Source: Oxalobacter formigenes (GTDB lineage Bacteria > Pseudomonadota > Gammaproteobacteria > Burkholderiales > Burkholderiaceae_D). From it: a stretch of 64,000 nucleotides of DNA. The notes under the pieces were generated by a model. That model saw nothing but the letters and a program-made list of their open reading frames with translations. It made no database searches and was not told where the DNA came from. Positions 4,644 to 16,678 of the stretch are shown here, one piece after another (within the stretch, counting starts at the first letter, position 1; each line of letters starts with the position of its first letter). A program made the translations under genes and the position numbers. The stretch is from contig JAMPAN010000001.1 in assembly GCA_023667225.1 (NCBI GenBank), positions 650,733-714,732 of the forward strand. Direction: 5' to 3'.

Positions 4644-5759
4644 CTAACAACCAGGTTCACCAAAACAGCCGATATCCGGTGTTGCCGTCTGCACATCACC
4701 GCATTGCGCCCGGTTGAGCAATGCGGCGTCCATCAAAACCAGTTTCAGCATTGCCTCGGCAACCGGCACAGCACGAATCCCCACACAGGGATCATGCCTG
4801 CCGTTGGTTTCCAGCATAACCGGCTTGCCATCCAGATCAATGGAACGCCGTGAAAGGCGGATAGACGGCGTCGGCTTGATAGCAAGCGAAACCGTAATAT
4901 CCTGCCCGGTTGAAATGCCTCCCAGGATACCGCCGGCCTGGTTACCGGCAAAACCATCCGGCGTCAGCTCGTCATTATGAACCGAACCGCGCTGTGAAAC
5001 GGCGGCAAAACCCGCGCCAATCTCCACGCCCTTCACAGCATTGATGCCCATCATGGCAAAGGCGATCATCGCATCCAGCTTGCCATACAGGGGATTGCCC
5101 AGGCCCACCGGCACATGCCGCGCCACCACATCCACCTGTGCGCCAATGGAATCCCCGTCCTTTCGCAAGGCATCCAGCGCCGTTTCCATCTGCATCAGAA
5201 CAGCCGCATCATCTGTGGGCGCAAAAAACGGGTTCATGCCCGTATGCGCAAAAGAAGCAAACGGAACCGCGATTTCCCCCATCCTGCTCAAACAGGCTTC
5301 CACCACCACGCCATATTTTTCCCTCAGCCACTTTCCGGCCACCGCGCCTGCCGCAACCGTCATTGCCGTCAACCGTGCTGAAGAGCGGCCGCCTCCGCGC
5401 GGATCGCGGATGCCATACTTCTGCCAGTACGTATAATCGGCATGCCCTGGCCGAAAAACCTCGCCCAGGCTGCCATAATCCCGGCTGCGCTGATCCTTGT
5501 TTTCAATCAGCAGCGCAATCGGTGTGCCGGTTGTCCTCCCCTCATACAGGCCGGAAAGGATTTTCACCGTATCAGGCTCGTTGCGCTGCGTCACATGGCG
5601 GGAAGTCCCCGGCCGCCTGCGATCCAGCTCCGGCTGGATATCCGCCTCGGAAAGCGCCATCCCCGGCGGGCAGCCGTCAATCACGCAGCCTATCGCCTTC
5701 CCGTGCGATTCACCAAAAGAAGTTACCGTAAACAAAGTGCCAAAAGTATTGCCTGACAT
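4644..5759 (-). CDS. aroC: Chorismate synthase
   Basis: Last step of the shikimate pathway: FMN-dependent elimination of phosphate from EPSP to give chorismate for aromatic amino acids, folate and quinones. The 371-residue protein opens with [19 protein letters not shown], and has [14 protein letters not shown] and [11 protein letters not shown], the flavin- and substrate-binding signatures. It starts 45 bases after the nuoN stop and is followed by leuC, so it sits between the respiratory operon and the leucine operon in one codirectional run. The C-terminal dozen residues look variable, as is usual. Confidence 0.97.
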
Positions 5760-5804: not shown

Positions 5805-7283
5805 TTACAGCGGCAAAACAGCCGCCATGCTGCCATGGCACAGCCCGATCAACCATCCCGGCAGCAGCCCCGGCAATACCACCGCCGCTGCATTACAGGC
5901 CAAAACAACAATCTCAAAATGGGATACCGCCGTCTTCCCTTCCACTGCCGGCGCATCAAAATACATCAGTTTGACAATGCGCAGATAATAAAAAGCGCCA
6001 ATCACCGACAGCACAATCGCCACAATCGCCAGCCAGACCTGGCCTGAAGCCACCAGCGCTTCCAGCACAGACAATTTGGCATAAAAACCGGCAACCGGCG
6101 GTATCCCGGCCAAAGACAGCATAAAAACCATCATGAAAAAAGCCAGCCAGGGATGCGTCCGGCCCAGTCCGCGGAAATCATCCCGCATCTGCGCTTCATA
6201 CCCGGTGCGTGACAATACCATCAGCACGCCAAACGCCCCCACAAAAGCCAGCACATAAATAAAAGTATAAAAAAGCGCCGATCCGTAAGCATCTGCTGCA
6301 AAAACAGAAAATGCCCCGCCATTTGCCCCGGAAAGCAGCCCCAACAGCATAAAACCCATCTGCCCGATAGTGGAATAAGCCAGCATCCGCCGGATATTGG
6401 CCTGAACCAGCGCCGTCAAATTGCCAACCGTCATGGAAAGCAAAGCCAGCACCGCCAGCATCTGCTGCCAGTCATCCGCCAGCGGAACCAGCCCTTCAGC
6501 CAGAATACGAAAACCCAGCGCAAACGCCGCCAGCTTGGGCACCCCGCCAATCAAAAGCGTCACGGAAGCCGGCGCCCCCTCGTAAACATCCGGTATCCAC
6601 ATATGGAAAGGTGCCGCCCCCAGCTTGAACCCGATGCCTGACACCGCAAAAACCACGCCAAAAACCAGAACCGTATGGTTCACCTGGCCCGACGCGCACG
6701 CCTGGCACATCTCCCGCAAATCCAGCGTCCCTGTCGCGCCATACAGCATGGAAATGCCATACAGCAAAAAACCGGAACCCAGCGCGCCCAAAACAAAAAA
6801 CTTGACAGCCGCTTCGGGAACCCTCTCCGTATTTCGCCGCATCGCCGCCAGCGCATACAACGGCAGCGACACCAGTTCAATCCCCAGATACAGCACCAGA
6901 AAATGCACACCGGAAATCACCACCAGCTGGCCCAGCAGGCAAAAAAGCGCCAGCACATAATATTCCCCGCCAATCACGCCCCCCATCATGCCATGCTCAT
7001 CAACATAGCGCCGCGCATAAAGAAGCGTGATAAAAAACAGCAGACAGGAAAACAGTTTCAAAAGCAACGATACCGCATCCGAAACAAACATGCCGCCAAA
7101 AGCATAAACAGCGCTTTGCCAAGGACAAAAATACAGGACAGCCCCGGCGCAAATGGCCGTCGCCGCCAGAGCAAACAGCCAGGTCATCCCCTGCTTTTTC
7201 CGGGGTAAAAACAGGTCAGCCGCCAGGATACCCAGCGTCAGCAGCAACAAAATTACCTCAGGATAAGCCAGCGACAGATTCAT
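5805..7283 (-). CDS. nuoN: NADH-quinone oxidoreductase subunit N
   Basis: Membrane proton-pumping subunit of complex I, homologous to Mrp antiporters. The 492-residue hydrophobic protein has many predicted membrane segments. NuoN-type motifs include AVKFFVLGALGSG, PFHMWIPDVYEGAP (quinone oxidoreductase domain), AYSTIGQMGFML and GIPPVAGFYAKL. The Shine-Dalgarno AGGAAG lies 3 bases before the ATG. Its sequence is that of NuoN, not NuoL or NuoM: it lacks the long amphipathic C-terminal helix of NuoL and has normal NuoN length. It begins only 19 bases after the nuoK stop, where nuoL and nuoM would be expected. Confidence 0.96.
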   Translation of the reverse strand: MNLSLAYPEVILLLLTLGILAADLFLPRKKQGMTWLFALAATAICAGAVLYFCPWQSAVYAFGGMFVSDAVSLLLKLFSCLLFFITLLYARRYVDEHGMMGGVIGGEYYVLALFCLLGQLVVISGVHFLVLYLGIELVSLPLYALAAMRRNTERVPEAAVKFFVLGALGSGFLLYGISMLYGATGTLDLREMCQACASGQVNHTVLVFGVVFAVSGIGFKLGAAPFHMWIPDVYEGAPASVTLLIGGVPKLAAFALGFRILAEGLVPLADDWQQMLAVLALLSMTVGNLTALVQANIRRMLAYSTIGQMGFMLLGLLSGANGGAFSVFAADAYGSALFYTFIYVLAFVGAFGVLMVLSRTGYEAQMRDDFRGLGRTHPWLAFFMMVFMLSLAGIPPVAGFYAKLSVLEALVASGQVWLAIVAIVLSVIGAFYYLRIVKLMYFDAPAVEGKTAVSHFEIVVLACNAAAVVLPGLLPGWLIGLCHGSMAAVLPL

Positions 7284-7302
7284 ATTCTTCCTATAGCCCG
7301 TC

Positions 7303-7611
7303 TTACCCCTTCAGGCTGTCAAGATCCCTGACATCAACCGAACGCAGGTTGCGAAACAACACCACCAGAATCGCCAGGCCAATCGCCGTTTCTGCTGCGG
7401 CAACAGTCAGGATAAAGAAAACAAAAATCTGGCCGACTGCATCTCCCAGATAACGGGAAAAAGCAACAAAATTCAGGTTTGCCGACAACAGCATCAGCTC
7501 AACCGACATCAGTAAAACCAGCAGATTGCGGCGATTGGCAAAAATACCGGCAACCGAAATGGCAAAAATAAGCGCGCCAGGAATCAGGTAATGCACCAGA
7601 GAAAGCGTCAT
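7303..7611 (-). CDS. nuoK: NADH-quinone oxidoreductase subunit K
   Basis: Small three-helix membrane subunit of complex I (MnhC-like), part of the E-channel and proton pathway. The 102 residues are typical. Conserved acidic residues appear in [18 protein letters not shown] (the helix-2 glutamate) and in the helix near [12 protein letters not shown]. Its ATG overlaps the nuoJ TGA (ATGA), indicating translational coupling. The gene after it is nuoN rather than nuoL. Confidence 0.97.
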
Positions 7612-8255
7612 ACCTGCGGCTCCTCTGTTTTTGCCTTGCTGCCCTCAGCCTGGCAGCAATAGGCCGTATCCGCCTCCATCTCCACCAGGCGCAGCCGCTT
7701 TCTGCTGTCTGCCGCCGCAGCCCTGGCTGCCGAAGTATAAATTGCCCCTTTGCGGCGGCGCAGCGTGAGCGCAACTGCCGCCACCATGGCAACCATGAGG
7801 ATGGCAGCGGCAATCTCAAAAGCATACAGATAATCCGTATAAAGCACCTTCCCCAGACTGCGGGTCAACCCGACTGTCCCCGAAGCCGAAGGCATTGCCG
7901 TCTCTTCCGTCCAGAAACCTTTTACCAGCACGGCTGCCATCTCGAAAACCATCGCCAGCCCTGCCAGAACGGCAACAGCCCTGTTTCGCCGAAGCCCTTC
8001 CCGGATCACCGCCAGATCAATATCCAGCATCATCACCACAAAAAGGAAAAGCACCATCACTGCGCCCACGTACACCAGCACCAGAATCAGGGCCAGAAAT
8101 TCCGCTTCCAGCAAAATCCAGATGGCTGCTGCCGAAAAAAACGACAGCACAAGATACAGGGCGGCATGAACGGGGTTGCGCGCTGTCACCACCCTAACCG
8201 CCGCCAGAACCAGGATAGCCGCAAACAGATAAAACAGGATCGTCTGAAACGCCAT
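7608..8255 (-). CDS. nuoJ: NADH-quinone oxidoreductase subunit J
   Basis: Membrane subunit of complex I with about five helices. The 215-residue protein has the conserved third-helix segment [19 protein letters not shown] (about residues 57-75), the pi-bulge helix that gates the E-channel. The C-terminus is a polar, basic/acidic tail after residue 165, like other beta-proteobacterial NuoJ. It lies 2 bases after nuoI and overlaps nuoK by 4 bases. Confidence 0.96.
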
Positions 8256-8257
8256 AC

Positions 8258-8767
8258 TCAGCTTACCTTCCTATTATGGCTGGCAGGCCTATCTGCCTGC
8301 CGCGCCCCTACAATCTCTGCCTCATACCGATCCCCCACTGCCAGCAATTCCGGCTTGGTAAAATACAGGGCGCTTCGGTCTTCCGCCGCATATTCAAACA
8401 ACTGTGTCTGCACAATGGCCTCAACCGGGCAGGCCTCCTGGCACAATCCGCAAAAAATACACTTCGTCTGGTCAATATCATAGCGCAAAGCCCGGCGCGT
8501 CCCGTCCGGGCCCATGCCGGATTCAATCGTAATCGCCATAGCCGGGCAAACAGCCTCGCATAATTTACAGGCAATGCACCGTTCGCTCCCGTCAGAATAG
8601 CGCCTCAAGGCATGCATTCCCCGGAAACGAGGAGAAACCGGCGTTTTTTCCTCCGGGTACTGCACCGTCACCTTGCGGGAAAAAAGATAGCGCAATGTAA
8701 CCCATAGCCCCTTCAATATTTCGAAAAGGAAAAAACTGCCTGCATATCTGCCTATCTTCTTCATCAT
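8258..8767 (-). CDS. nuoI: NADH-quinone oxidoreductase subunit I
   Basis: Peripheral-arm ferredoxin-like subunit that carries clusters N6a and N6b to the quinone site. Two complete CX2CX2CX3CP motifs are present: [12 protein letters not shown] and [13 protein letters not shown] choose the ATG at 8767 (169 residues) because the following [20 protein letters not shown] matches the N-terminal helix of beta-proteobacterial NuoI. The frame is open to 8863 but would then overlap nuoH by 85 bases. A second in-frame ATG at 8764 is equally possible. The ribosome-binding site is weak. Confidence 0.94.
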
Positions 8768-8778
8768 GTCCGGCCCGC

Positions 8779-9855
8779 TCAATCCCATATATTCAGGGGC
8801 GTCTGTATCCAGCAGGCAACCAGCACCAGATACGCCATCGTAACAGGGAGAAAAACTTTCCACCCTAAACGCATAGTATGGTCATACCGGTAGCGGGGCA
8901 GCGTTGCCCTCACCCAGATAAAGAAAAAAACCACCAGGGAAGCTTTCGCCCCCAGCCAGACCCAGCCCGGTATCCAGGACAACACCGCCCAGTCCACCGG
9001 CGGCAGCCATCCGCCCAGGAACAAGAGCGCCGTCATGGCAGAAAACAGGATCATATTGGCATATTCCGCCATGAAAAACATGCCGAAAGCAATACCGGAA
9101 TATTCCACCATGTGGCCGCCTACAATCTCCGATTCACCTTCCAGCGCATCAAAAGGATGCCGCGCCGTCTCCGCCAGGGCCGACACCATAAAAATCACAA
9201 AAAGCGGAAAAAGCGGCAGCCAGTTCCACGAGAAAACACTCCATCCGTGAACAGCAAAAAAGCCCCTCCCCTGGGCCAGCACCACATCAGACAAATTCAG
9301 GCTGCCGGAAACCATCAGCACCGTCACCATCACAAACCCCATCGGTATGCCGAAAGCAATCATCTGTGCAGCCGCGCGCATTGCCCCCAAAAAAGCATAT
9401 TGGGAATTGGTTGCCCATCCGGCAATAATCACGCCATACACCCCAATTGATGTTATGGCAAGAAAAAACAGCATCCCCGCATCCAGGTCAGCCAGCGCCA
9501 TCTCCGGGCCAAACGGTATCACCGCCCAGGCAGCCAGCGCCGGCGTCATGGTCAGAACCGGAGCCAGATAAAACAACTTCCTGTCTGCCCTCTCCGGAAC
9601 AACAATTTCCTTCATCAGCAGCTTGATACCGTCGGCAACCGGCTGCAACAACCCCAGCGGCCCGGTCCGGTTGGGGCCAATGCGCACATGCATCCAGCCG
9701 ACAACCTTCCTTTCCCACCAGGTCAGATACGCCACCATGAAAAGCACCGGTGCCAACACACAGCCCAGCTTGACCATCGTCCAGACAAAAAACCAGCCCT
9801 CGCCGAACCAGTCGCGGCCATAGCCATGAATCAGGGCAAGCACGTCAGCCATCAT
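8779..9855 (-). CDS. nuoH: NADH-quinone oxidoreductase subunit H
   Basis: Membrane subunit that forms the quinone chamber with NuoB and NuoD. The 358-residue polytopic protein shows [18 protein letters not shown] (about residues 46-63), the conserved first cytoplasmic loop, and [15 protein letters not shown] with an EYSG after it, the acidic loop at the quinone site. Canonical members have ETNRxPFD; the asparagine is alanine here. It overlaps the end of nuoG by 11 bases, with GAGG as its Shine-Dalgarno inside nuoG. Confidence 0.96.
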
Positions 9856-12178
9856 ATGCCTCTACCTGAAGTGTCCCGAATGCCGGGCCAAGCCCCGCTG
9901 CCGCCGGATTACTGCCGGAAAGCCGCGCCACCTGGTCAGACAGCGCCCCGTCCGGCACAGCAGACAATACCGCTTTTTCCTGGCCCTGCCGCACTATTAC
10001 CTTCCCGCCGGCGGCCACCCCCAGCCTGTGGCACAACGCAACAGGCAAATAAATACAGCCGGACTCGTGTTCCTGCCTTTTCAGCAAAGCCGCCGCCCGC
10101 CGCGCAACCGGATCTGCCAGGCCGTCTGTCAGACGTTCCAGCACAACAGGCTCAACCCGCGTCAATACAGGCGGACAGCCGGCAAAATTATTCAGCCTGC
10201 CAGAAATATCCCCGCCGGCTTCCTGAAGAAAATCATTGCGCACTGCCTCAATGCTTTCATATGCAAAACCGTCCAGCGCCAGCAAACTGCCCAGCGCCCG
10301 CAGCACCTTCCATGCCGGACGCGTCTGCCCTAAAGGCCGGACAGCCCCCTGAAAACACTGCATCCGCCCCTCGCAGCTGATATAGGCTCCCGCCGTCTCG
10401 GTAAAAGGTGAAACCGGCAGCATCACATCCGCATAATCCTCACTGTGGCGATAAGGCGACATCACCACCACCATCTTGGCCTGGGCCAGGTTTTTCAGCA
10501 CCAGCGGCGGATTTGCCGCATCCTGCCCTGGCTCCACATGCAGCAGCAACCAGGCAGCATGGCGGCGATCCAGCAAATTCCCCATCCGGGAAACACCGGG
10601 TTGCAACGCATTTACCAAAGCACCGCCCGCCCCGTTGGCCCCCTCTGTCAGATACCCCAGCTGCGCACCGGTCTTTTCAGCCAGCCATTCAGCCATCGTA
10701 TGCAGCTCGGACAATTTCGGGTGTCCCGCCGCTGCATTCCCCAGGAAAATCGCATGATTGCCCTGCGAAAGCAACACAGCGGCAATCCCCCGCGCGGCCT
10801 CCGCTGGCACAATCCCATCCATCCCGTCCGGTATCGCAACCGCCTTTGCCTGCGCCACGGCAACCAGCACCTCCGCCAGCCGGGCAGGCCATTGCGAAGG
10901 AGCCGCAACCATCCTGTGCCGGACCGGCATCAGCCAGTCATCATCCATCCCGTGCAGGCTGCTGATAACCGCCCCCCTTCCGGCTGCCCGCCGGAAACGG
11001 ACAGCCATAACAGGCTGCTCCTGCCTGAGGAAAGCGCCAATCACAAAAGCGCTATCCAGGGTATCAATATCCGTTACCTGCATCCCCAGCCAGGGCGTCA
11101 CCTTCCCGTCAAGAAAAAAATCCGCCTGGCGGGGCCGGAAATCCACATTTGGCGAACCCAATCCATTCATCAGCTTCCTCAGCAGCCACATCTCCTCTAA
11201 AGTTGCCTGGGGAGAAGCCATTGCCGCCAGTGCAGTTTTTCCGTCATCGGCAGAAATATCCCGAAGCCCGCGCACAATATAGTCCAGCGCCGCTGCCCAG
11301 CCTGTCTCTATCCACCGGTTCCCCTGCTTGACCATAGGCGTATGCAGCCTTTCTTCGCTGTTTAACCCCTCATAGGAAAAACGGTCACGGTCGGAAAGCC
11401 AGCATTCGTTAACCGCCTCGTTTTCCTTTGGCAGCACCCGCATCACCTTGTCCTGCCATGTCTGGACAACCAGATTGGAACCCAGGCTGTCATGGGGGCT
11501 GACAGAAAAACGGGAAACCAGCTCCCAGCTCCGCGCTCTGAAACGGAAGGGAAGAGAAGTCAGCGCACCTACCGGACACAAATCAATCATATTGCCGGAC
11601 AATTCGGATACCATCGCCTTTTCAACCGCCGGGGCAATTTCTGCCCGCCCGGAACGGCAGAACATACCCAATTCCCGTATCCCGGCAACCTCCTCGCCAA
11701 AACGCAGGCAACGCGTACAATGAATGCAGCGGCTCATCTCCTGCATGGAAACAAGCGGCCCCGCATCCCTTTTCAGCACAACCCGCTTCTCTTCCTGATA
11801 GCGAGAAACCCCGCTGCCATACCGGAAAGACACATCCTGCAACAGGCACTCCCCCGCCTGGTCGCACACCGGGCAATCCAGCGGATGATTCGCCAGCAAA
11901 AACTCCAGTACCGCCTTTTGCGCCTCAATCACTTTGGCAGTTGCCGTATGCACTGCCATACCGTCTGCCGCCTGCAAAGCGCAGGCAGGTTGCAGACGGG
12001 CAGAACCCGCCACCTCCACCAGACACATGCGGCAGCTGGCCGTAACAGACAGCTTCTTGTGGTAACAGAAATGCGGCACCGGCACCCCCGCGTCCAGCGC
12101 GGCCTGAAGCACGCTGGAACCCGGCGCAACCGCCAGCCGCTTCCCGTCAATCTCGATTTCTGCCTGCTTCTCCGCCAT
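9845..12178 (-). CDS. nuoG: NADH-quinone oxidoreductase subunit G
   Basis: Large iron-sulfur subunit of the NADH-dehydrogenase arm (777 residues). The N-terminal 2Fe-2S ferredoxin domain has cysteines in PHFCYH, ASCRMC and QPACA. It is followed by the His/Cys-ligated cluster motif HPLDCPVCDQAGEC, a CIHCTRC...CPVGAL 4Fe-4S site, and a molybdopterin-oxidoreductase-like C-terminal half that is catalytically silent in the family. I place the start at 12178 (MAEKQAEIEIDG) because the frame above it overlaps nuoF and shows no similarity. Confidence 0.95.
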   Translation of the reverse strand: MAEKQAEIEIDGKRLAVAPGSSVLQAALDAGVPVPHFCYHKKLSVTASCRMCLVEVAGSARLQPACALQAADGMAVHTATAKVIEAQKAVLEFLLANHPLDCPVCDQAGECLLQDVSFRYGSGVSRYQEEKRVVLKRDAGPLVSMQEMSRCIHCTRCLRFGEEVAGIRELGMFCRSGRAEIAPAVEKAMVSELSGNMIDLCPVGALTSLPFRFRARSWELVSRFSVSPHDSLGSNLVVQTWQDKVMRVLPKENEAVNECWLSDRDRFSYEGLNSEERLHTPMVKQGNRWIETGWAAALDYIVRGLRDISADDGKTALAAMASPQATLEEMWLLRKLMNGLGSPNVDFRPRQADFFLDGKVTPWLGMQVTDIDTLDSAFVIGAFLRQEQPVMAVRFRRAAGRGAVISSLHGMDDDWLMPVRHRMVAAPSQWPARLAEVLVAVAQAKAVAIPDGMDGIVPAEAARGIAAVLLSQGNHAIFLGNAAAGHPKLSELHTMAEWLAEKTGAQLGYLTEGANGAGGALVNALQPGVSRMGNLLDRRHAAWLLLHVEPGQDAANPPLVLKNLAQAKMVVVMSPYRHSEDYADVMLPVSPFTETAGAYISCEGRMQCFQGAVRPLGQTRPAWKVLRALGSLLALDGFAYESIEAVRNDFLQEAGGDISGRLNNFAGCPPVLTRVEPVVLERLTDGLADPVARRAAALLKRQEHESGCIYLPVALCHRLGVAAGGKVIVRQGQEKAVLSAVPDGALSDQVARLSGSNPAAAGLGPAFGTLQVEAYDG

Positions 12179-12185
12179 TTTCCGC

Positions 12186-13472
12186 TCAGTTGCAAACCGG
12201 GCAGCGCCTGCCCCTGATATGGTTCTCAAATTCTTCCCTGAAATGCTGAAGGAAAGACCTTACCGGCATCGCCGCCGCATCACCCAGTGCGCAAATCGTC
12301 CTCCCCTGGATATTGCCCGCCACCGCATCCAGCAGCGCCAGGTCATCCGGTTTTCCCTGCCCCTTCGCTATCCGGTGGATAATACGATACATCCAGCCTG
12401 TTCCTTCCCTGCAGGGGGTGCACTGGCCGCAGGATTCCTCATGAAAAAACCGGGCCAGACTCAAAAGCGCCGACACCATACAGCGCGAACCATCCAGCAC
12501 AATCACCCCGCCCGACCCCAGCATGGAACCCGCCTGCGCCACACCGTCATAATCCATTGCTGCGCGCATCATCGCCGCTCCTGGCACCACCGGCGAAGAT
12601 GCCCCGCCGGGAATAACCGCCTTCAGTTCCCGGCCTTCGCGCACACCGCCCGCCTTTTCCAGCAAAACCGGAAACGGCGTTCCCATTGGAACCTCGTAAT
12701 TTCCCGGATACCGGACATCGCCCGACACCGAAAAAATTTTCATGCCGCCGCCACCTGCTTTTCCTCTCGCGGCAAAAGCAGCGCCGCCGCCAGCCAGAAT
12801 AAAAGGCACATAGGCCAGCGTCTCCACATTATTGACCAACGTCGGCTGCCCGTATAACCCGTGCGTTGCAGGGAAAGGCGGCCTGAAACGGGGCTGCCCC
12901 CGTTTGCCCTCCATGGATTCCAGAAGCGCCGTTTCTTCCCCGCAGACATACGCGCCGAAGCCATGAAAAGGATGCAAATCAAAACAAAAACCGCTTTCAT
13001 GCGGCTGCCCGATCAATCCGGCCTGGCGCGCTTCGGCAACCGCTTCCGTGAACCGCTCATATTCGGCCCATATTTCGCCGTGGATATAAACATACCCGGC
13101 AGATGCGCCTGTCGCATACGCGGCAATCAGCATTCCTTCAATCACGGCATGCGGGTTATAGCGCAGAATATCCCTGTCCTTGAATGTGCCCGGCTCGCTT
13201 TCGTCGGCATTGCACACCAGGTAAACCGGCCCGGCATGATCCCGCGGCATGAACCCCCACTTGGTTCCCGTCGGGAAAGCCGCGCCGCCCCTGCCGCGCA
13301 AAGTGGAAGCCGTCACTTCCGCAATCACCTTCTCCGGCGAAATCCCCTCCTGGAAAATACGCCGGAAAGCCGCATACCCGCCCCGCGACACATAGTCCTC
13401 AAGCCGCCAATTCCTGCCGTTTAGCCCGGCAAACAGGAGGGGAGCAATATGGCGGTCATGCAGGCACGTCAT
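12186..13472 (-). CDS. nuoF: NADH-quinone oxidoreductase subunit F
   Basis: NADH- and FMN-binding subunit of complex I, the entry point for electrons. The 428-residue protein has the glycine-rich NADH/FMN loops [14 protein letters not shown] and [17 protein letters not shown], and the N3 cluster ligands [12 protein letters not shown] with the distal cysteine in GRTICALGD. Its ATG overlaps the nuoE stop (ATGA). Because NuoE, F and G are all present, this enzyme should accept NADH directly, unlike the 11-subunit forms that use other donors. Confidence 0.97.
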
Positions 13473-13948
13473 TTTCCCAGCTCCTCCAGCAGCCGGTCAA
13501 TCCGGTCAGGCGTCATGCGCACATACATCTGCCGGTTATTCACCAGCAAAACCGGCCCTTCGCCGCAAGCGCCCATACACTCGCCCCTGGCAAGAGTAAA
13601 CCGGCCGTCCGGCGTTGTCTCGCCAAAGCCGATGCCCAGCCTGCTCTGGAGATGCTGCGCCGCCTGGCCGCTTCCGGCCAGATCACAAGGCAGGCTGCCG
13701 CAAACCGTAATCTTGTAACGGCCTACCGGCCTTATATCAAACATGCTGTAAAAACTGGCGATTTCCGCAATAACCACAAACGGCACCCCCAGATAATCCG
13801 CAATCTCCTGCATACTTTCCGAGGAAAGCCAGCGGGTCTCTTCCTGCACGATTGCCATCACCGCCACCGCAGCCGAGCGCTTTTCCCCTGGGGGAAACTT
13901 GGCAACCTCATGCGCCATTTTCTCGTAGGTTTCCTGACTGAATGCCAT
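13469..13948 (-). CDS. nuoE: NADH-quinone oxidoreductase subunit E
   Basis: Thioredoxin-like [2Fe-2S] subunit (N1a cluster) of the dehydrogenase arm. Ligands are visible in CGSLPC and CMGAC. I take the ATG at 13948 (159 residues, [11 protein letters not shown]), which matches where family members begin. The frame extends upstream only to a TTG at 13960. The gene lies 26 bases after nuoD and overlaps nuoF by 4 bases. Confidence 0.96.
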
Positions 13949-13974
13949 CCCTGCCGCCAATCCTTTTTCCGCCC

Positions 13975-15228
13975 TTAACGGTCAATTTCCCCGAAAACAA
14001 TATCAATATTGCCGATAACCGAAACCACATCGGCAATCAGATGTCCTTTGACCATATTGCCAAGATTTTGCAGATGCGCAAAACCCGGCGCACGGATTTT
14101 CATACGATACGGCTTGTTTGCGCCGTCAGAAAGCAGATAGACACCAAATTCACCCTTCGGCGCTTCAACCGCCGCATAAACCTCCCCCGGCGGCGCCTGA
14201 ATCCCCTCGGAAAACAGCTTGAAATGATGAATCATCTCTTCCATTCCGTCTTTCAGACTGGCCTTTTCAGGCGGCGCCACCTTGCGGTCTGCCGTCATCA
14301 CCGGCCCCGGATGCTGCCTCAGCCATTCCACGCACTGCCGGATAATCCGGTTTGACTGGCGCATCTCCTCCATCCGCACAAGGTAGCGGTCATAGCAATC
14401 CCCCTCCTTGCCTACCGGTATGGCAAAATCCAGCTGGTCATAAACGGCATAAGGCTGTTTTTTGCGCAAATCCCACTCCACGCCCGATCCGCGCAGCATG
14501 GGGCCGGTAAACCCGGCTGCTTTGGCAGCCTCCGGTGAAACCACGCCAACCCCCACAAGGCGCTGCTTCCAGATACGGTTATCCGTCAGGAGCGTTTCAT
14601 ATTCATCCACATATCCCGGAAAACGCCCGGTAAAATCGGCAATAAAATCCAGGAGCGAACCCTGCCTTGCCGCATTTCTTGCCTGCATACGCTTGGCCTT
14701 GCTCAAATGGGTCTGACGATACTGCGGCATCGTTTCCGGCAAATCCCGGCTGACCCCGCCCGGCCGGTAATAAGCCGCATGCATACGTGCGCCGCTGACC
14801 GCTTCATAACAGTCGAAAAGATCCTCACGCTCCCGGAAAGTATATAAAAAAACCGCCATGGCCCCGATATCCAGCGCCTGCGCCCCCAAAAACAGCAAAT
14901 GGTTCAACAGCCGGGTAATTTCATCAAACATCACGCGGATATACCGGGCGCGAATTGGCACCTCAATCCCCAGCAGCTTTTCCACCCCCAGCACATAGGC
15001 ATGCTCATTGGCCATCATGGAAACATAGTCCAGCCGGTCCATATAAGGCAGCGCCTGCAACCAGGTTTTTTGTTCTGCCAGCTTTTCTGTGCCCCGGTGC
15101 AGCATCCCGATATGCGGATCAGCAGACTGCACCACCTCGCCGTCCAGCTCAAGAATCAGCCGCAGCACACCGTGGGTTGCAGGATGCTGCGGCCCAAAAT
15201 TCACCGTGTAATTCCTGATCTCCGTCAT
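13975..15228 (-). CDS. nuoD: NADH-quinone oxidoreductase subunit D
   Basis: 49-kDa-type peripheral subunit, related to the [NiFe]-hydrogenase large subunit, which helps form the quinone-binding cavity. The 417-residue protein has [15 protein letters not shown] (residues 10-24) including the quinone-site histidine, [13 protein letters not shown], and a normal C-terminus ending DIVFGEIDR. Its ATG overlaps the nuoC stop as TAATG. Confidence 0.97.
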
Positions 15229-15824
15229 TATTTCCTGCCGCCATCTGCTTGCCGGAAAATCCTGGGTGGCGGCTCGCGCCGCTCAATTGTCACCGGCTGA
15301 TACACCACCTGCCGCTTTTGCTCGTCATACCGCACTTCCACCAGGCCATGCACAGGAAAATCCTTCCTCAAGGGATGACCGATAAATCCATAATCCGTCA
15401 GAATACGCCGCAAATCAGGATGCCCCTCAAACAGGATACCCAGCAGGTCAAACGCCTCCCGCTCATACCAGTTTGCCGCTGGCCAGACAGGCGTCACACT
15501 GGGCAGCAACGGCAAGGCATCATCCGGCGCAAACACCCTCACCCGCAGCCGCCGGTTATATTTCAGGGAAAGCAGGTGAGCCACCACCGCATACCGGGGG
15601 CCGTCATGGGACTGGCCCCCGTATTCGGCATAATCCACGCCGCACAAATCAATCAATTCCTCAAAGGCAAAATCCGGGTTATCCCTGAGCTGCTGCATGG
15701 CATCCCGGTAACCGGCAGCATCCACCTCCAGCGTTACCTCCCCCAAAGCGCAGACACAGGAACGGATATGCCTGCCCAAATGTTCCTGCAATTTTTCCTG
15801 GAGCTGCGCCAGCCTGGTCGTCAT
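15228..15824 (-). CDS. nuoC: NADH-quinone oxidoreductase subunit C
   Basis: 30-kDa-type peripheral subunit that packs against NuoD (198 residues). The signature [22 protein letters not shown]-like block is present: [12 protein letters not shown] followed by [13 protein letters not shown] and HPLRKDFP. The start at 15824 ([11 protein letters not shown]) has AGGTGG close upstream. The longer open frame to 15923 would overlap nuoB by 85 bases and is not supported. Confidence 0.95.
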
Positions 15825-15838
15825 ATCCACCTGCCCCG

Positions 15839-16315
15839 CTATCGTGCAATAGTATGGGTTCGCCTGATCCGGCTCTTCAACTGGATAAACGCATACATCA
15901 GCGCCTCTGCCGTAGGCGGGCATCCCGGCACATACACATCTACCGGCACAATCCGGTCACAGCCGCGCACCACCGAATAGGAATCATGGTAATAGCCGCC
16001 CCCGTTGGCACAGGAACCCATGGAAATCACCCAGCGCGGCTCGGCCATCTGGTCATACACCTTCCTTAGCGCAGGCGCCATTTTGTTGCACAGCGTCCCC
16101 GCCACAATCATGACATCAGACTGCCGTGGCGTCGGCCGGTAAAAAGTGCCATAGCGATCCAGGTCATAACGGGAAGCGCTGGCATGCATCATCTCAATCG
16201 CACAACAGGCCAGCCCAAACGAAACAGGCCAAAGCGAACCCGTCCGTCCCCAGTTAATGACCATGTCCAGCGAAGTTGTGATAAAACCCTTTGAAAACAG
16301 CCCTTCCAGTGCCAT
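15839..16315 (-). CDS. nuoB: NADH-quinone oxidoreductase subunit B
   Basis: Carries the terminal cluster N2 that reduces quinone (158 residues). All four ligands are visible: the tandem cysteines in [10 protein letters not shown], then GSCANGG and PGCPPTAE. The N-terminal helix [20 protein letters not shown] is typical. It follows nuoA by 3 bases and precedes nuoC by 14. Confidence 0.97.
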
Positions 16316-16318
16316 CCG

Positions 16319-16678
16319 TCACTCCCAGTCCAGCGCCCCTCTTTTCCAGACATACCAAAGCCCGACAGCCAGCTCGGCAATAAAAACCAGCATCGCTGCC
16401 ACCCCCTGCCAGCCAATATCCTTTAAAGCGGCCGCACATGGAAACAGAAAGGCCGTTTCCAGATCAAACAGGATAAAAAGAATGGCAACCAGATAATAAC
16501 GCACATCAAACTTCACCCGTGCATTATCAAAAGCGGGAAAACCGCATTCATAAGGCGAATTCTTTTCGGGATCAGGCCGGTGCGGCGCTGCCAGCCGCCC
16601 CGCCAGAAGAGAAAAAACACTGAAAAGCCCGCCAACCAGGATAAACAGAAGAACCGGGAAATAAGTTTCCGCTATCAC
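16319..16678 (-). CDS. nuoA: NADH-quinone oxidoreductase subunit A
   Basis: First gene of the complex I operon: a 119-residue, three-helix membrane subunit. It has the conserved loop [20 protein letters not shown] with the redox-exposed cysteine, and the helix [17 protein letters not shown] with the buried acidic residues. A candidate sigma-70 promoter lies about 150 bases upstream (16832-16860). In related genomes nuoA follows tRNA-Leu closely. Here it is separated from it by more than 5 kb of inserted genes. Confidence 0.97.

What the first reader, a model, noticed from the sequence alone, without database searches (positions are those of the whole stretch)
7284..7302. Complex I operon lacks nuoL and nuoM between nuoK and nuoN
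Seen: nuoA,B,C,D,E,F,G,H,I,J,K are all intact and in canonical order, then nuoN begins 19 bases after nuoK with its own AGGAAG site. No part of nuoL or nuoM is present, and no scar is left. Known: NuoL, NuoM and NuoN are the three antiporter-like pump subunits, and NuoL's lateral helix spans the membrane arm. Inference: either the two genes sit elsewhere, or this organism runs a 12-subunit complex with a short membrane arm and a lower proton yield per NADH. The other subunits keep their cofactor ligands, so the complex still looks selected for.
Basis: partly seen in the sequence, partly recalled or inferred. Interest (0 to 1): 0.85.

Follow-up and report, generated by a model that had tools for sequence, protein, structure and literature searches.

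The report
Split complex I operon, pumps relocated
Two proton-pump genes missing from this bacterium's respiratory complex I operon are not lost: they sit intact about 500,000 bases away, right in front of the ATP synthase genes, so the organism almost certainly builds an ordinary full-size complex I.

Summary
The junction is real: nuoK (7303-7611, -) is followed after 19 bp by nuoN (5805-7283, -), with no nuoL or nuoM between them. The short-arm inference is refuted. The same contig (C11, 792 kb) carries one intact nuoL (694 aa) and one intact nuoM (495 aa) about 500 kb away, between gloB and atpI-atpB, directly upstream of the ATP synthase operon. No other antiporter-family gene is found in the genome. 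NuoL and NuoM keep every tested proton-path residue and are under purifying selection (dN/dS 0.14 and 0.09).

The organism belongs to an oxalate-degrading genus, by inference Oxalobacter. The split is seen, whole or in part, in six of its 13 genomes, including a single-contig one; these form one clade. The other seven are canonical as far as their contigs show, and nuoM adjoins nuoN in all 46 genomes checked from other genera. Trees of NuoLM and of the rest of the operon agree, so the native pair moved once and was not replaced by foreign genes. Both flanks are otherwise collinear. A 14-bp element, probably a promoter, is conserved 5' of nuoL, and the old atp promoter is kept.

This is a clade-specific rearrangement of a known kind, of low interest.

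The parts
7284..7302 (-). 19-bp nuoK-nuoN spacer with AGGAAG ribosome-binding site; the place where nuoL and nuoM sit in canonical relatives
   Evidence: sequence; junction compared across 11 same-genus genomes
5805..7283 (-). nuoN, 492 aa, intact, proton-path Glu/Lys residues present
   Evidence: NF004442 613.9 bits over cut-off 523; residues
7303..7611 (-). nuoK, 102 aa, intact
   Evidence: NF004321 159.3 bits over cut-off 91
7608..8255 (-). nuoJ
8258..8863 (-). nuoI
8779..9855 (-). nuoH
9845..12229 (-). nuoG
12186..13472 (-). nuoF
13469..13960 (-). nuoE
13975..15228 (-). nuoD
15228..15923 (-). nuoC (ORF; true start probably inside)
   Evidence: ORF list; homologues in relatives
15839..16315 (-). 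nuoB
16319..16678 (-). nuoA, 119 aa
   Evidence: ORF and position at the head of the operon
4644..5759 (-). aroC, the gene after nuoN in both split and canonical species; shows that the 3' flank is unrearranged
   Evidence: synteny

Best explanation
This is a normal 14-subunit complex I encoded at two loci. In one clade of an oxalate-degrading genus (inferred Oxalobacter), the native nuoL-nuoM pair was moved once, from between nuoK and nuoN to a site between gloB and the promoter of the atpI-atpB ATP synthase operon. The two genes are still expressed, probably from their own promoter with possible read-through into atp, and their products assemble in trans with the other twelve subunits into a full-length membrane arm. 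Shown: both loci, intact genes, purifying selection, one-clade distribution, NuoLM phylogeny congruent with the rest of the operon. Inferred: expression, assembly, and the route of the move (excision and insertion, or duplication followed by loss of one copy at each site).
For: Own genome (99.98% complete) holds exactly three Proton_antipo_M genes: nuoN in the window, and nuoL and nuoM at C11:151703-154637 on the same contig. NuoL is 694 aa and NuoM 495 aa; the best PDB matches are NuoL and NuoM chains of entry 8qby. The proton-path residues equivalent to E. coli NuoL E144, K229, H254, K342, K399 and NuoM E144, K234, K265, E407 are all kept. dN/dS between G000 and G007: nuoL 0.139, nuoM 0.087, against nuoN 0.151 and nuoK 0.173. 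Synteny: canonical species have gloB-atpI and nuoK-L-M-N-aroC; split species have gloB-nuoL-nuoM-atpI and nuoK-nuoN-aroC. NuoLM and NuoGHIJKN trees both recover the split genomes as one clade with 100% support inside the genus. The atp promoter TTGACT-18-TATAAT is retained downstream of nuoM. AATTTGGTATCATG lies 86 bp 5' of nuoL, is identical in all four split genomes whose gloB-nuoL region is held, and is the only exact occurrence in the three of them searched whole.
Against: No expression or protein data. nuoL in the split clade has no strong Shine-Dalgarno site before the chosen ATG, so its translation level is unknown. G012 (85% complete) shows K-N but its L and M were not found; G002 (76% complete) shows L-M-atpB but its K and N were not found. 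Both fit fragmentary assemblies.
Confidence: 0.95

Rival explanations
1. A 12-subunit complex I with a short membrane arm and a lower proton yield.
For: The K-N junction is clean and lacks L and M. E. coli without NuoL still assembles a complex that pumps with about 1 H+/e- (PMC9271201), so such a form is physically possible.
Against: Intact nuoL and nuoM under purifying selection are in the same genome.
Confidence: 0.02
2. nuoLM at the atp locus is a foreign (horizontally acquired) pair that replaced the native genes.
For: The pair sits at a new place.
Against: The NuoLM tree matches the NuoGHIJKN tree and places the pair inside the genus.
Confidence: 0.02
3. The junction is an assembly artefact.
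For: G000 is in 37 contigs.
Against: Five assemblies share the K-N side and five share the relocated L-M side (G000, G007, G001, G006, G002), one of them a single contig; neither junction is at a contig end in G000.
Confidence: 0.005
4. The relocation is adaptive co-regulation: nuoLM were placed under control shared with ATP synthase to balance proton flow.
For: nuoLM lies on the same strand directly 5' of the atp operon in every split genome where the region is held (G000, G007, G001, G002), about 300 bp from atpI, with no convincing terminator seen right after nuoM.
Against: The atp operon keeps its own conserved promoter between nuoM and atpI, and nuoLM has its own conserved upstream element. 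A neutral move retained by descent explains the clade equally well.
Confidence: 0.15

Closest known systems
Canonical 14-gene nuo operon of Betaproteobacteria (nuoABCDEFGHIJKLMN)
   Same: All 14 subunits are present; nuoA-K order is unchanged; sequences are betaproteobacterial.
   Different: nuoLM are about 500 kb away at the atp locus instead of between nuoK and nuoN.
Split nuo gene clusters in prokaryotes (survey in PMC12361115)
   Same: Subunit genes lie in more than one cluster; the survey reports a mix of split and single clusters in most complex I clades.
   Different: The survey says the betaproteobacterial part is dominated by single clusters; here the split removes exactly the nuoLM pair and puts it next to the ATP synthase operon.
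E. coli nuo gene-order experiments (Oppermann et al. 2022, seen only as a title in the reference list of PMC12361115)
   Different: Engineered, not natural; the paper itself was not read here.
Mrp antiporters
   Same: Share the Proton_antipo_M family with NuoL, M and N.
   Different: No Mrp genes in this genome; the relocated pair are true NuoL and NuoM by tree and residues.

Membership tests
Complete 14-subunit NADH:quinone oxidoreductase (complex I) | All of NuoA-N encoded in the genome | tested here: met
   NuoB, D-K and N by NCBIfam; NuoA and NuoC by ORF and synteny; NuoL and NuoM on the same contig
Complete 14-subunit NADH:quinone oxidoreductase (complex I) | Proton-path Lys/Glu residues in NuoL, M and N | tested here: met
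   (E. coli residue numbers from own knowledge)
Complete 14-subunit NADH:quinone oxidoreductase (complex I) | The assembled complex contains all subunits | not testable with these tools
   needs protein work
Short-arm complex I lacking NuoL and NuoM | No NuoL or NuoM gene in the genome | tested here: not met
Split nuo operon | nuo genes in two or more separate clusters | tested here: met
Oxalobacter (host genus) | Oxalyl-CoA decarboxylase | tested here: met

The most novel reading that the evidence does not exclude
Because nuoLM now appears to have its own promoter beside the ATP synthase operon, the cell could vary the supply of the distal pump module and switch between 14-subunit and short-arm complex I, setting proton yield in step with ATP synthase level.
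Probability: 0.04. Interest if true: 0.6.

Novelty: new member of a known kind. Interest (0 to 1): 0.22.

Why it matters
It shows that absence of a subunit from an operon does not mean absence from the complex. It is a single-event natural case of nuo operon splitting in a class where the operon is usually whole, and closely related split and unsplit species make it usable for testing whether operon linkage matters for complex I assembly.

Tried and rejected
The short-arm complex was rejected once intact nuoL and nuoM were found. Foreign replacement was rejected by congruent trees. Misassembly was rejected by shared junctions, including a single-contig genome. An inversion breakpoint was rejected because both flanks are collinear with canonical species. 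A search for nuoK, nuoN, nuoL or nuoM remnants in the new intergenic regions gave only chance-level hits, so the route of the move left no visible trace. The first tblastn run used misframed nuoM, atpI and atpB queries; nuoM and atpI were corrected and atpB, and the synteny conclusion is unchanged. A first dN/dS script failed and was rerun. Literature searches found no paper on complex I gene order in Oxalobacter.

Full report
Observation. The window carries nuoA to nuoK in order on the minus strand, then nuoN after a 19-bp spacer (7284-7302) that contains AGGAAG. Nothing of nuoL or nuoM is between them.

Where the genes are. A search of the window's own genome (1.97 Mb, 37 contigs, 99.98% complete) with the Proton_antipo_M family gives exactly three genes: nuoN in the window and two more at C11:151703-154637, on the same 792-kb contig, about 500 kb away. 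The fetched stretch (L004) shows nuoL (694 aa, C11:151280-153364), nuoM (495 aa, C11:153387-154874), then atpI, atpB, atpE, atpA, atpG and atpD, all on the plus strand, with gloB upstream.

Are they functional? The best solved relatives are the NuoL and NuoM chains of entry 8qby. All tested proton-path residues are kept across split and canonical genomes (residue numbers from E. coli are from my own knowledge). Between the two closest split genomes, dN/dS is 0.139 for nuoL and 0.087 for nuoM, in the range of the other nuo genes.

How far does the split go? Twelve other genomes of the same genus are held. G007 and the single-contig G001 show both halves of the arrangement. G006 shows K-N on one contig and gloB-L-M on another. 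G002 shows L-M-atpB, and G012 shows K-N. G003, G004, G005, G010 and G011 have K-L-M-N; G008 has K-L-M with N on another contig; G009 has L-M-N. Putting the L and M positions beside the N positions, nuoM is next to nuoN in all 46 genomes checked from 46 other genera. Nearly all of the 80 loci fetched with NuoN also show K-L-M-N where the contig is long enough; the exceptions L034 and L046 carry a lone nuoN-like gene.

History. Trees of NuoL+NuoM and of NuoG,H,I,J,K,N agree: the split genomes form one clade with 100% support, next to G008, inside the genus. So the native pair moved once. Flanks at both sites are collinear between split and unsplit species, which excludes an inversion breakpoint and points to excision-insertion or to duplication followed by differential loss. 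No remnants were found to tell these apart.

Expression signals. In canonical species the gloB-atpI gap contains a promoter of the form TTGAC...TATAAT. In split species nuoLM lies between gloB and this promoter, which is kept. Upstream of nuoL the 14-mer AATTTGGTATCATG is identical in four split genomes while its surroundings have diverged; shuffled sequences share at most 7-mers. In the three split genomes searched whole it is the only exact match, and the four canonical genomes searched have no exact match. It contains TGGTATCAT, which resembles an extended -10 element; that it is the nuoLM promoter is inference.

Setting. No cytochrome bd oxidase, no heme-copper oxidase, and no succinate dehydrogenase or fumarate reductase above cut-off were found in seven genomes. 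What this complex I works with is therefore an open question, separate from the finding.

Known or new. A 2025 survey reports that split nuo clusters occur in most complex I clades, with the betaproteobacterial part dominated by single clusters (PMC12361115). No paper describing this arrangement was found. It is a new example of a known kind.

Noticed in passing
genus genomes G000, G001, G003, G007, G008, G010, G011: A conserved complex I coexists with no detectable cytochrome bd oxidase, heme-copper oxidase, or SDH/FRD above cut-off. Its electron acceptor, or a reverse (PMF-driven NAD+ reduction) role, is unexplained.
   Followed up: partly
L004:8182-8195 (G000:C11:151181-151194): 14-bp element AATTTGGTATCATG 86 bp 5' of the relocated nuoL, identical in four split genomes and the only exact match in the three searched whole; probable promoter.
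   Followed up: partly
L034:9758-11380 and L046:9992-11461: Lone nuoN-like gene in Burkholderia and Paraburkholderia records with no nuoK, L or M found in the locus; apparently an extra stand-alone copy.
   Followed up: no
G008:C36:12277-18232: Second set of three antiporter-family genes, scoring lower against the family model, in the unsplit sister species; possibly an Mrp- or hydrogenase-type complex.
   Followed up: no
window 12186-13472: nuoF has dS 0.361 between G000 and G007, against 0.10-0.21 for the other nuo genes; possibly local recombination in nuoF.
   Followed up: no
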